From: Bacteroidia bacterium
GTDB lineage: Bacteria > Bacteroidota > Bacteroidia > Flavobacteriales > Flavobacteriaceae
Reading direction: 5' to 3'
NCBI GenBank assembly: GCA_030427585.1
Contig: JAUIBW010000010.1
Span: 62,001-126,000, forward strand
Length of the DNA stretch: 64,000 bases
In this document: piece after piece, positions 13,259-57,548 of the stretch
How the letters are laid out: every line of letters begins with the position of its first letter
Numbering within the stretch: the stretch's first letter is position 1
Notes under the pieces: generated by a model
Told to the model about the DNA's origin: nothing
What the model saw: only the letters and a program-made list of their open reading frames with translations
Databases searched by the model: none
Position numbers and translations under genes: made by a program

Positions 13259-14281
13259 ATGTGGTCTAACATCATAAACGTCTTTACAATTTCTATTGAT
13301 TTAATTTTACTTTTTATACTTTTTACACTTCCAGCAAAAAAAGCAGAGAAAAATAAATCTTTAATACTTCTACTTAATGCCTTACTCATACATCTTTTGG
13401 CAGAGCAATTGCTAATTAAAAGTTTAATTTCAGTTTACTCATTTTCAATAATCACAGTTTCTATGGTCGTAATATATGGCCCTGCATTATATTCCTATAC
13501 AAGGAATCTTTATGGATTAAAAACAAAAGGTATGGGCTACCATATTTTTTTCTATGAATTAATATTAGTTATTATATGGTATACCAATCTAAAAACGGAT
13601 TATGTTTTTCCTCAATGGGCATACAGTCTTTATTACACCAGTATATTAATTATATATTTTTTATTTAGTCTTTCAGTAATTAAAAACAATAAGAAAGAAC
13701 TTAATAAAAATAATTCATGGTCCATATCCTTAGGAATTGGTTTTGGGATACTTGTGCTGTTGCAAATTATGGAAGCTTTATGGATAAATTTTGATAAGGT
13801 TTCGGCAGTCGAAACGGCTTATTTGTTTACAATGTTACAAAACGTTTCTTGTTGTGTTTTTATGTTAATGGCCATTAAACAAATAGTTACAAACCCTCAA
13901 TTATTTTCTGGAGTGCAACTACGAATTTTAAATTCATATAAAACAGGTATTAATACTCAAGAACTAAATCTGATTTTAGAATTTGTAAAAACAAAAAAGG
14001 CATATAAAGACTCTAAACTTAATCGTTACATTATTTCTGATGCTACCGGACTAAACACTAACTTAATTTCAAAAATTATCAATTCAGCTTTCGGAAAAAA
14101 TCTAAATGTGTGGATTAATGATTTTAGAATTGACGAAGCAAAAATTTTGCTTAAAGAAACTTCTTTAAGCATAAAGGAAATTTATTTTGAGGTTGGTTTT
14201 AATTCTAAATCGGCTTTCAATAATTCTTTTAAAAAGAAAGTGGGTCAAACTCCTTCAGAATACAGGTTAAGTCTCGACTAA
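13259..14281 (+). CDS. Membrane-embedded AraC family transcriptional regulator
   Basis: A 340-residue protein. The first ~220 residues contain about seven hydrophobic helices. The last ~95 residues form an AraC-type double helix-turn-helix (INDFRIDEAKILLKET, then IKEIYFEVGFNSKSAFNNSF and the terminal KKKVGQTPSEYR). This architecture is common in Bacteroidetes and suggests direct sensing in the membrane. It is the first gene of an accessory block on one strand (13.2-19.4 kb) with a 107-bp gap to the next gene, so it may control those genes. The signal it senses is unknown. Confidence 0.9.
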   Translation: MWSNIINVFTISIDLILLFILFTLPAKKAEKNKSLILLLNALLIHLLAEQLLIKSLISVYSFSIITVSMVVIYGPALYSYTRNLYGLKTKGMGYHIFFYELILVIIWYTNLKTDYVFPQWAYSLYYTSILIIYFLFSLSVIKNNKKELNKNNSWSISLGIGFGILVLLQIMEALWINFDKVSAVETAYLFTMLQNVSCCVFMLMAIKQIVTNPQLFSGVQLRILNSYKTGINTQELNLILEFVKTKKAYKDSKLNRYIISDATGLNTNLISKIINSAFGKNLNVWINDFRIDEAKILLKETSLSIKEIYFEVGFNSKSAFNNSFKKKVGQTPSEYRLSLD

Positions 14282-56040: not shown

Positions 56041-56832
56041 TTACCAAGCCCAAACTTTGTATGATGATACTTTATCATTCCATGATTTTTTCCAGAACCA
56101 CCATCCCGATAAAGTATAATTTCTTAAATCATTTGCTCCGGCAGCAGTTTGATAATATGGAGAATAAAAATTCAAGGTTCTACCGTTATAACAACTATGT
56201 TGATATAATCTTACATATGCTCTTCTTCCCCACGGTTTAGTGAGTCTAAGAGAAGACATATGGTCATTGTACCCTCCCAAATTCCAATCTTTGTAATAGT
56301 ATTTATTAGTTCTTCGTATACCTGTCATTTCTGTAACATAGTTAATATGATAATAGAAATAAAAGGTTCCGGTACCATTAATAGACCCATCAACACAAGC
56401 TCCTTTTGTTCCTCGCTGTTCTGATCTTTCTTTAGGAAAATCTCCTGCTAGTTTAGCTATATATTCATCTACCTCATCATTAGTATTAAAAACTTTTACA
56501 TTAATGGTTGTTTCTCCTTCTTTTTGATCTTCAAAAAACAATCCTTGAGGAGCATCTTTTTTTCCAAAAATACGTTCTGCCATTTGCACATCTCCATCTA
56601 CTTTTACTATTTCAGATTCCTTGGTATCTAAAACATAAAGGACTTTAAATTTTTCCCCGTAATAATCATAATTGTGCACGATTTCTACAATTCCTCGTTC
56701 GGGAGCTTTATTCTGAAGATCTTTAGTTGATTCTACACCAGATTCTTCGATAGTTAATTCGTCTTTATTACAACTTGTAAAGACAAAAAGCATCATAACT
56801 AACACTGCACAGAGTTTAATAATTAGTTTCAT
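56041..56832 (-). CDS. Beta/gamma-crystallin-like surface lipoprotein
   Basis: A 263-residue lipoprotein. The signal ends at VFTSCNKDELTIEE; the acidic residues after Cys resemble a surface-export signal. The C-terminal ~70 residues look like a beta/gamma-crystallin domain: two calcium-binding motifs of the form [N/D][N/D]xx[S/T]S, NDHMSS and NDKVSS, plus a Greek-key Y-x4-[FY]-x-G (YQHSCYNG). The middle (residues 75-140) is unassigned. The domain probably binds calcium and lies outside the cell. It is monocistronic. Confidence 0.7.
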   Translation of the reverse strand: MKLIIKLCAVLVMMLFVFTSCNKDELTIEESGVESTKDLQNKAPERGIVEIVHNYDYYGEKFKVLYVLDTKESEIVKVDGDVQMAERIFGKKDAPQGLFFEDQKEGETTINVKVFNTNDEVDEYIAKLAGDFPKERSEQRGTKGACVDGSINGTGTFYFYYHINYVTEMTGIRRTNKYYYKDWNLGGYNDHMSSLRLTKPWGRRAYVRLYQHSCYNGRTLNFYSPYYQTAAGANDLRNYTLSGWWFWKKSWNDKVSSYKVWAW

Positions 56833-56971
56833 TTTTTATGGTTTTAAGATTCCTACTCTATTTAAGGCTTTTCGGAGTTCGCCTATAGTTTTGGTTAGGG
56901 TGCTATTAATCATTTTTGGCGCCTTTAAAACTCTTAATAGCATATGTAAATGTATTCTTTTTCCTTTGAGT

Positions 56972-56996
56972 AAAAAGGGGGAAATATCCCCTTTTT
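56972..56996. terminator. Terminator-like hairpin
   Basis: aaaaagggg (56972-56980) pairs with ccccttttt (56988-56996) around a 7-base loop. It is symmetrical enough to work on either strand. Confidence 0.55.
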
Positions 56997-57034
56997 CACA
57001 AAAGAATACCTTACACATTATATGCATATCCATC

Positions 57035-57088
57035 AAAACAGATAATGGTTACCCATTACATATCTAATGAATAACCATTATCTGTTTT
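57035..57088. terminator. Long hairpin, bidirectional
   Basis: aaaacagataatggtta (57035-57051) is exactly complementary to taaccattatctgtttt (57072-57088), a 17-bp stem. An inner catta/taatg pairing lies in the 20-base loop. It stands alone upstream of the peptide promoter. Confidence 0.65.
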
Positions 57089-57171: not shown

Positions 57172-57179
57172 TACATTTG
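57172..57179 (+). promoter_or_regulatory. -7 promoter box of the double-glycine peptide gene
   Basis: TACATTTG matches TAnnTTTG; a TTG lies 25 bp upstream (57144-57146). The leader to the ATG at 57216 is about 33 bases. Confidence 0.5.
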
Positions 57180-57215: not shown

Positions 57216-57404
57216 ATGTTAAACAAAATTCTAAATTTAAATGGTAAAACACTTAACAAAAGCGAACAAAAACTAATTAACGGGGGAGAAATACAATTCC
57301 CTATAGGCTGCAGAACAAGAGCAGATTGCATAAGAGTGACAGGGGAGTTTGACTGGGATTGTTCTCGCAGAATTGGAGGATCAGGAATTTGCGTACCTCT
57401 ATAG
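57216..57404 (+). CDS. Double-glycine leader, cysteine-rich peptide (bacteriocin-like)
   Basis: A 62-residue peptide. The leader, MLNKILNLNGKTLNKSEQKL then INGG (residues 21-24), has the hydrophobic spacing and terminal Gly-Gly of ComC/bacteriocin-type leaders cut by C39 peptidase ABC exporters. The 38-residue core has four cysteines at 32, 38, 49 and 59 (C-x5-C-x10-C-x9-C), which suggests two disulfides. No exporter, immunity gene or modifying enzyme is seen nearby, so it would need a transporter encoded elsewhere. The gene has its own promoter and terminator. A pheromone or signal role is as likely as a toxin. Confidence 0.75.
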   Translation: MLNKILNLNGKTLNKSEQKLINGGEIQFPIGCRTRADCIRVTGEFDWDCSRRIGGSGICVPL

Positions 57405-57468
57405 AGGTATCATCTATGATTCTTTACTTATCTATATCAAAACATTAAAGTGTTTTTGCATTAGAATT

Positions 57469-57504
57469 TATCCGGATTATGTACTTCAAACCATAATCCG
57501 GATA
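57469..57504 (+). terminator. Intrinsic terminator after the peptide gene
   Basis: tatccggattatg (57469-57481) pairs with cataatccggata (57492-57504), a perfect 13-bp stem with a 10-base loop and a T-rich tail. Confidence 0.85.
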
Positions 57505-57548
57505 TCTTTTTCTGAGTTCTTATGTATTTCAGAGCTATATAATAATTT

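What the first reader, a model, noticed from the sequence alone, without database searches (positions are those of the whole stretch)
57216..57404. Orphan double-glycine, four-cysteine peptide gene
A 62-codon gene encodes a classic Gly-Gly leader and a 38-residue core with four cysteines (C-x5-C-x10-C-x9-C). It has its own -7 box and strong terminator but no visible exporter, immunity or modification gene within the window. It may be a secreted antimicrobial or signalling peptide using a transporter in trans.
Basis: partly seen in the sequence, partly recalled or inferred. Interest (0 to 1): 0.6.

Follow-up and report, generated by a model that had tools for sequence, protein, structure and literature searches.

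The report
Exported disulfide-bonded mini-protein, dispersed family member
A marine bacterium carries a stand-alone gene for a tiny exported protein, probably held together by two disulfide bonds, which belongs to a large and very variable family that seems to share one dedicated folding-and-export machine encoded elsewhere in the genome.

Summary
In detail: 57216-57404(+) encodes a 62-aa peptide, a 24-aa Gly-Gly leader plus a 38-aa core with C-x5-C-x10-C-x9-C. It is a real gene: 98% conserved in Aquimarina atlantica, four cysteines invariant in 16 homologues, purifying selection. It is orphan only locally. Its leader marks a class with 19 members found in this genome and 292 distinct cores overall, near-constant leaders but hypervariable cores. 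Cysteine number is nearly always even (184 even, 13 odd, 4 none in 201 representatives), which points to disulfides. These genes cluster with a fusion protein, a C39-like domain without its catalytic cysteine + VKOR + thioredoxin, and often with one C39 exporter type. Two direct homologues lie inside such an operon. This genome carries the fusion on contig C41 and that exporter on C37. Best explanation: the peptide is bound through its leader, oxidised by the fusion, and cleaved and exported in trans. Leader docking, oxidation by this enzyme and activity are inferred. A lanthipeptide reading is disfavoured. New variant of a known kind: double-glycine peptides with an accessory disulfide catalyst.

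The parts
57216..57404 (+). CDS, 62 aa, stand-alone double-glycine leader peptide with four cysteines
   Evidence: orthologue and homologues; purifying selection
57216..57287 (+). 24-residue Gly-Gly leader (MLNKILNLNGKTLNKSEQKLINGG)
   Evidence: leader-class HMM (this peptide is one of the 29 seeds, so it matches by construction); L13, K15, Q18, I21, G23, G24 invariant in 17 rows
57288..57401 (+). 38-residue core, predicted mature peptide; C32, C38, C49, C59 (codons start at 57309, 57327, 57360, 57390)
   Evidence: four Cys invariant in 17 rows; AlphaFold blocks from residue 31 on have pLDDT 78-86, helix 35-42, strands 47-51 and 57-61
57172..57179 (+). possible -7 box TACATTTG (Bacteroidetes-type promoter, motif recalled)
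   Evidence: kept in A. atlantica but not upstream of the other 15 homologues; motif not enriched in the window
57470..57514 (+). intrinsic terminator: 12-bp stem ATCCGGATTATG / CATAATCCGGAT plus T-rich tail
   Evidence: z -4.63 for 57405-57525

Best explanation
The gene encodes the precursor of a small exported cystine peptide. Proposed order: (1) the 24-aa leader is recognised by a C39 exporter, most likely the ABC/C39 protein on contig C37 with its HlyD partner; (2) the membrane protein encoded on contig C41 (C39-like domain without the catalytic cysteine + VKOR + thioredoxin) docks the same leader with its C39-like domain, and its thioredoxin/VKOR modules pass electrons from the four core cysteines to quinone, making two disulfides as the peptide emerges; (3) the exporter cuts after Gly24 and releases the 38-aa peptide. 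The gene is a dispersed member of a family whose other members often stay in operon with one or both machines. Shown by computation: gene, leader class, Cys conservation and parity, linkage of the leader class to the fusion and exporter in relatives, fold of the C39-like domain, loss of its catalytic cysteine. Inferred: leader docking, disulfide formation by this enzyme, use of the C37 exporter, secretion, activity. I think an interference or toxin-like role is more likely than signalling, but only weakly.
For:: 13 invariant positions including GG and four Cys; purifying selection; VKOR hits (nearly all of them in frames of fusion length, 515-590 aa) and peptide matches agree in 50 of 52 genus genomes (42 both, 8 neither, 2 VKOR only; Fisher 6e-8); homologues of the window peptide are inside the fusion operon in G008 and G048; leader-class peptides 28 times denser within 3 kb of the fusion (111 in 344 kb against 5 in 441 kb, 58 neighbourhoods); cassettes with fusion, peptides, C37-type exporter and HlyD in Tenacibaculum and other Flavobacteriaceae; 184 even, 13 odd, 4 without Cys in 201 representative cores; 15 of 15 Cys-bearing class peptides of this genome even; 22 further representatives from newly sampled genomes, not similar to the 201, give 20 even, 1 odd, 1 without Cys. 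Pfam C39, VKOR and thioredoxin domains; catalytic Cys, His and Asp present in the three own exporters; the Cys is absent in all four fusion domains aligned, His and Asp are kept only in single rows. C39-like domain model matches ComA peptidase (E 3.6e-6, TM 0.70) and the HlyB C39-like domain (E 1.1e-4, TM 0.66).
Against: No experiment. The window gene is beside neither machine, and most of its direct homologues are not either; many sit near TPR/AraC-type regulators and lanthipeptide-type peptides. The own C37 exporter lies in a grasp-with-spasm island, so its natural client may be another peptide, and two other C39 exporters exist. The C39 match of the own C41 fusion (17.0 bits) is below Pfam's cut-off of 22. 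Of the 29 leader-HMM seeds, 7 come from fusion islands (L054, L057) and at least 3 of the 21 also lie beside fusions, so the linkage test is partly circular. 13 of 41 main-type and 8 of 17 other fusion loci show no leader-class peptide within 3 kb, nor do 11 of 17 loci of the class-wide sample within the stretch read. Genomes lacking both fusion and peptides may form one clade; this was not corrected for. The fold of the core has no significant structural match.
Confidence: 0.58

Rival explanations
1. Exported disulfide peptide, but oxidised by ordinary periplasmic or extracellular chemistry; the fusion serves only the clustered peptides.
For: The window gene is unlinked to the fusion. In E. 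coli, bactofencin A formed its disulfide without its accessory thioredoxin protein (passages of PMC5465099).
Against: Close co-occurrence of VKOR fusion and peptide family in the genus; direct homologues inside the fusion operon.
Confidence: 0.2
2. A lanthipeptide or other thioether peptide modified in trans by the genome's LanB/LanC enzymes.
For: A LanB and a LanC are encoded with C39 exporters on C50 and C56; homologues in L200 and L201 lie near LanC genes.
Against: The leader gives no NCBIfam hit whereas a neighbouring small peptide in relatives does hit the class I lanthipeptide leader; 4 of 17 direct homologues have 3 Ser/Thr for 4 Cys and 95 of 192 class cores with 4 or more Cys have fewer Ser/Thr than Cys; no Ser/Thr column is invariant.
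Confidence: 0.07
3. A signalling peptide read by a regulator of the TPR/AraC type.
For: In several relatives, and for the own paralogue on C16, the homologue lies near a gene of about 550-585 aa; three own ones (L053, L052, L049) and the one in L060 are TPR + AraC-type HTH by Pfam. Cores are mostly not cationic (29% have net positive charge).
Against: At most of these loci another small Gly-Gly peptide gene lies between regulator and homologue and is the better partner (not so in L060); the only window match to that regulator is an AraC-type HTH stretch at 14054-14263, 43 kb away; hypervariable cores fit antagonism better than signalling (inference).
Confidence: 0.2
4. A decaying relic copied out of a fusion operon and no longer functional.
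For: Isolated position, no linked partner.
Against: Orthologue in A. atlantica with no amino-acid change in the core against two silent ones there; dN/dS 0.14, though on very few substitutions; intact terminator.
Confidence: 0.08

Closest known systems
Class II double-glycine bacteriocins with a thioredoxin-type accessory protein (pediocin PA-1/PedC; bactofencin A)
   Same: ABC exporter, Cys forming disulfides, accessory protein for disulfides; PedC reported to ensure correct disulfides (passages of PMC5465099); Gly-Gly leader and C39 domain of the pediocin system recalled
   Different: Here the accessory protein is a C39-like + VKOR + thioredoxin membrane fusion, lies next to many peptides, and no immunity gene was recognised
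C39-like domain of HlyB (PDB 3zua) and C39 peptidases ComA, PCAT1, LahT
   Same: Fold of the fusion's N-domain; C39 domains bind substrate leaders (recalled; the 6mpz title names a leader complex)
   Different: The fusion domain is attached to a redox enzyme instead of an ABC exporter
Bacterial VKOR and VKOR-thioredoxin fusions
   Same: VKOR core with C-terminal thioredoxin-like domain is a known layout (passage of PMC4555120)
   Different: Extra N-terminal C39-like domain and linkage to Gly-Gly peptides
NCBIfam NF047798 leader_Chryseo 'bacteriocin-like protein'
   Same: Short leader of bacteriocin-like peptides; three related peptides of G008 score 11-14.5 bits
   Different: Below its 23.5-bit cut-off; the window peptide gives no match
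Venom or plant cystine peptides (conotoxin-like, NCR-like precursors)
   Same: Works-like analogy only: constant leader, hypervariable Cys-rich core (analogy recalled)
   Different: No homology claimed; best structural neighbours are weak (6avd Z 2.6)

Membership tests
Double-glycine leader peptides (C39 exporter substrates) | Leader of about 15-30 aa ending in GG with conserved hydrophobic positions | tested here: met
Double-glycine leader peptides (C39 exporter substrates) | A C39 exporter in the genome | tested here: met
   three, all in trans; catalytic residues present
Double-glycine leader peptides (C39 exporter substrates) | Cleavage after GG and secretion | not testable with these tools
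   needs mass spectrometry
Class IIa (pediocin-like) bacteriocins | YGNGV box in the core (named in the abstract of PMC3546714, seen in the listing) | tested here: not met
   core sequence
Class IIa (pediocin-like) bacteriocins | Linked immunity gene | tested here: inconclusive
   none recognised by eye near the window gene or in three cassettes of relatives; unknown types not excluded
Lanthipeptides | Lanthipeptide-type leader | tested here: not met
   no NCBIfam hit
Lanthipeptides | At least one Ser/Thr per ring-forming Cys | tested here: inconclusive
   window core has 4 for 4; 4 of 17 rows have 3 for 4
NF047798 leader_Chryseo | Score over the curated 23.5 bits | tested here: not met
Client class of the C39-like/VKOR/thioredoxin fusion (defined here) | Homologues encoded in the fusion operon | tested here: met
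   G008 and G048
Client class of the C39-like/VKOR/thioredoxin fusion (defined here) | Even number of core cysteines | tested here: met
   4; class statistics
Client class of the C39-like/VKOR/thioredoxin fusion (defined here) | Disulfides made by the fusion | not testable with these tools
   needs deletion plus mass spectrometry

The most novel reading that the evidence does not exclude
Flavobacteria run a venom-like peptide library: one constant leader and many hypervariable cystine scaffolds (79 spacing patterns among 107 four-Cys representatives), all handled by a leader-guided disulfide catalyst in which a dead C39 protease domain became the substrate receptor of a VKOR-thioredoxin oxidase. 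Because recognition lies in the leader alone, members such as the window gene can drift away from the operon and diversify freely.
Probability: 0.45. Interest if true: 0.8.

Novelty: new variant of a known kind. Interest (0 to 1): 0.62.

Why it matters
If true, it gives a leader-directed way of making disulfide-rich peptides in Gram-negative bacteria, explains why isolated Gly-Gly peptide genes lack partners nearby, and offers a portable catalyst (leader + fusion protein) for folding arbitrary cystine peptides. The parity result makes the hypothesis directly testable by one deletion and one mass spectrum.

Tried and rejected
Chance frame: rejected. Known families: no Pfam, NCBIfam or PADLOC match for the peptide. 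PDB sequence profile search: only E 0.57 and 0.88. Fold of the core: Foldseek nothing under E 2.8; VIA-align best 6avd Z 2.6, rmsd 1.8 over 33 residues, then ToPI1 and a ZNRF3-binding peptide at Z 2.1: hints of cystine-dense folds, not evidence. Promoter box as a family feature: rejected. Lanthipeptide and graspetide readings: disfavoured, see rivals; no ATP-grasp homologue in the window.

Parity controls: 15 lanthipeptide-type cores had 1, 2 or 3 Cys (5, 4, 6); 1239 other small ORFs showed no overall parity (389 with 1, 220 with 2, 116 with 3, 47 with 4), though 5 Cys (8) was rarer than 6 (11), perhaps through class members below the HMM cut-off. The 13 odd representatives are listed; some look like truncated ORFs (L113, L029), others look genuine (for example 5 Cys in L057, next to the fusion). 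Clustering was by difflib ratio, so remote relatives still count as separate; the trend stays at stricter cut-offs. In one search I set aside two peptides of another leader type in L051 (0 and 2 Cys). The 19 own-genome members are those in fetched stretches, not a full scan.

Rows dropped: 6 of 64 neighbourhoods (L156, L162, L172, L176, L177 and the 1-kb placeholder L186) gave no ATG-started fusion ORF with an alignment over 250 aa and were left out. In one search, 1 of 18 loci (L265, 6.5 kb) was left out as short; 11 of 17 showed no leader-class peptide and 5 of 17 no C37-type exporter. In one search, 57 distinct fusion proteins of 480 aa or more were counted: 48 have no Cys in the first 120 residues, 9 have one or two. 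The dN/dS list keeps only 22 of 136 pairs (synonymous difference between 0.02 and 0.5); 17 are at or below 0.31, and the five with the divergent L203 are 0.32-0.55. Two VKOR-positive genomes lack peptide matches: G013 (78% complete) and G039. The first LanB test in the window ran with an empty query and counts for nothing; one search repeats it.

Literature: ten searches of an open-access library listed no paper whose title or abstract start describes this fusion with Gly-Gly peptides; I saw passages only of PMC8939145, PMC3482391, PMC5465099 and PMC4555120, and PMC4555119 gave none. Most subscription papers are not held.

Full report
What is there. The nearest named relative is Aquimarina atlantica 22II-S11-z7, where the gene is 98% identical as protein and sits between the same neighbours, an SDR-type gene and a lipoprotein gene (both names recalled from the sequence). 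Coding DNA differs at 4 of 189 positions: one amino-acid change in the leader and three silent changes, one of them in the stop codon. A strong hairpin terminator follows. The promoter box is plausible but unproven.

It belongs to a family. A search of 91 related genomes found matches in 45, of which 42 are of the same genus, with 13 matches in the own genome and 16 at a looser cut-off. Seventeen sequences (window included) keep GG, four Cys, D37, G43 and W47 in every row. Of the 22 pairs close enough for dN/dS, 17 are at or below 0.31; the five that include the divergent L203 are 0.32-0.55. The surroundings of the homologues fall into three main kinds: solitary (window, A. atlantica); near a TPR/AraC-type gene, mostly with a second small Gly-Gly peptide between (for example the own paralogue on C16; in L060 without one); and inside an operon with a large membrane protein (G008 = L057, G048 = L064). 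In L063 the neighbour is another peptide of the same leader type.

The operon protein. In G008 it is 531 aa with, in order, a C39 peptidase-like domain, a VKOR domain and a thioredoxin domain; four Gly-Gly peptides follow it directly, the third being the homologue of the window peptide. The own genome has this protein on C41, again among Gly-Gly peptides and between the same flanking genes (PBP2, RodA, a nuclease-like gene; OppC-like and Ctp-like genes; names recalled from the sequence). Of 41 such loci, 30 have both flanks and 28 have at least one leader-class peptide within 3 kb. More distant forms of the fusion (about 25-35% identity) often stand beside an exporter 66-76% identical to the own C37 C39 exporter and its HlyD partner: 10 of 17 loci counted, and 12 of all 64 neighbourhoods hold that exporter. 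In Tenacibaculum, Flavobacterium and others, cassettes hold fusion, peptides, exporter and HlyD, in L205 and L215 in the order fusion - peptides - exporter - peptides - HlyD. A class-wide sample of 295 genomes gave hits to the C39-like domain in 17, own genome included; of 17 loci read, 12 have the same exporter type (57-72% identical) within the stretch and 6 have leader-class peptides.

Co-occurrence. In 52 genus genomes, VKOR hits and peptide matches are both present in 42, both absent in 8, VKOR alone in 2, peptides alone in none (Fisher 6e-8); with only genomes of at least 90% completeness 40, 5, 1 and 0. Five of the six peptide-free genomes of at least 90% completeness (G005, G007, G035, G036, G039; not G050) do have C39 matches, so an exporter alone does not predict the peptides. 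Shared ancestry of the negative genomes was not corrected for.

Why disulfides. A leader HMM, built on leaders only (29 seeds, about 24 residues), collected 420 ORFs, 292 distinct cores (189 seen in loci of the own genus, 109 elsewhere) and 201 representatives. Cys counts: 0 in 4, 1 in 1, 2 in 3, 3 in 1, 4 in 107, 5 in 9, 6 in 68, 7 in 2, 8 in 6. The excess of even numbers stays under stricter clustering. In this genome all 15 Cys-bearing class members found are even and 4 have none. Newly sampled genomes gave 24 representatives from 6 loci, 22 of them not similar to the 201: 20 even, 1 odd, 1 without Cys. Half of the cores with 4 or more Cys (95 of 192) hold fewer Ser/Thr than Cys, so lanthionines cannot use all cysteines there. 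All 57 fusion proteins counted carry CxxC in the thioredoxin part.

Why the fusion might grip the leader. The C39-like domain (alignment A3, first row from L189) is predicted at pLDDT 86.6 and matches the peptidase domains of ComA and PCAT1, the HlyB C39-like domain and the LahT-leader complex (the name LahT for 6mpz is recalled). The catalytic Cys of the three own exporters is absent in the four fusion domains aligned with them, and His and Asp survive only in single rows. A protease fold that has kept its shape and lost its nucleophile, placed on a disulfide catalyst beside leader-bearing peptides, is best read as a leader receptor. This step is inference.

The mature peptide. AlphaFold with 17 rows gives the core from residue 31 on moderate confidence (blocks of 78-86) with a helix at 35-42 and strands at 47-51 and 57-61, a layout that recalls cysteine-stabilised alpha-beta peptides, but no structural match is significant. 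Net charge of the window core is 0, and only 29% of class cores are positive, which speaks against simple membrane lysis.

Status. Gene and family: shown by computation. Two disulfides: strongly suggested. Oxidation by the C41 fusion and export by the C37 transporter: best-supported inference; the C37 exporter also sits with grasp-with-spasm-type genes and may serve several clients. Activity: open.

Noticed in passing
L053:10203-12203, L052:3101-5135, L049:12247-14322 (own genome): Three own-genome pairs of a small Gly-Gly peptide gene next to a gene of 569-585 aa; all three large proteins are TPR + AraC-type HTH by Pfam. They look like possible peptide-sensor pairs.
   Followed up: partly
L054:15107-15911 (own genome C41); similar Cys-free peptides at L068 and L168: Four tandem, nearly identical leader-class peptides without any cysteine (first one ends DPLTNEPVVDLDISQEALLPGQI) inside the fusion island; the layout table shows four Cys-free peptides in L068 and L168 too. 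Function of Cys-free members unclear.
   Followed up: no
window 56836-57036 (-): A 66-codon ORF ends 3 bases before the lipoprotein gene start and is nearly identical in A. atlantica; possible small upstream gene.
   Followed up: no
window 57039-57084 (-): Inverted repeat (20 pairs) followed by TTTT on the minus strand, about 200 bases upstream of the lipoprotein start; terminator or attenuator.
   Followed up: no
window 56041-56832 (-): Divergent lipoprotein gene with a weak beta/gamma-crystallin match (E 0.053, below cut-off), conserved in A. atlantica.
   Followed up: partly
L051 (own genome C50): Island with a LanB (Pfam Lant_dehydr_N), HlyD, C39 exporter, a second, divergent VKOR fusion and small Gly-Gly peptides of another leader type.
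   Followed up: partly
class cores, all loci: Motif C-x4-D-C occurs in 34 of 192 cores against 7 expected after shuffling (maximum 14 in 200 shuffles), so part of the diversity may share one ancestral scaffold.
   Followed up: partly
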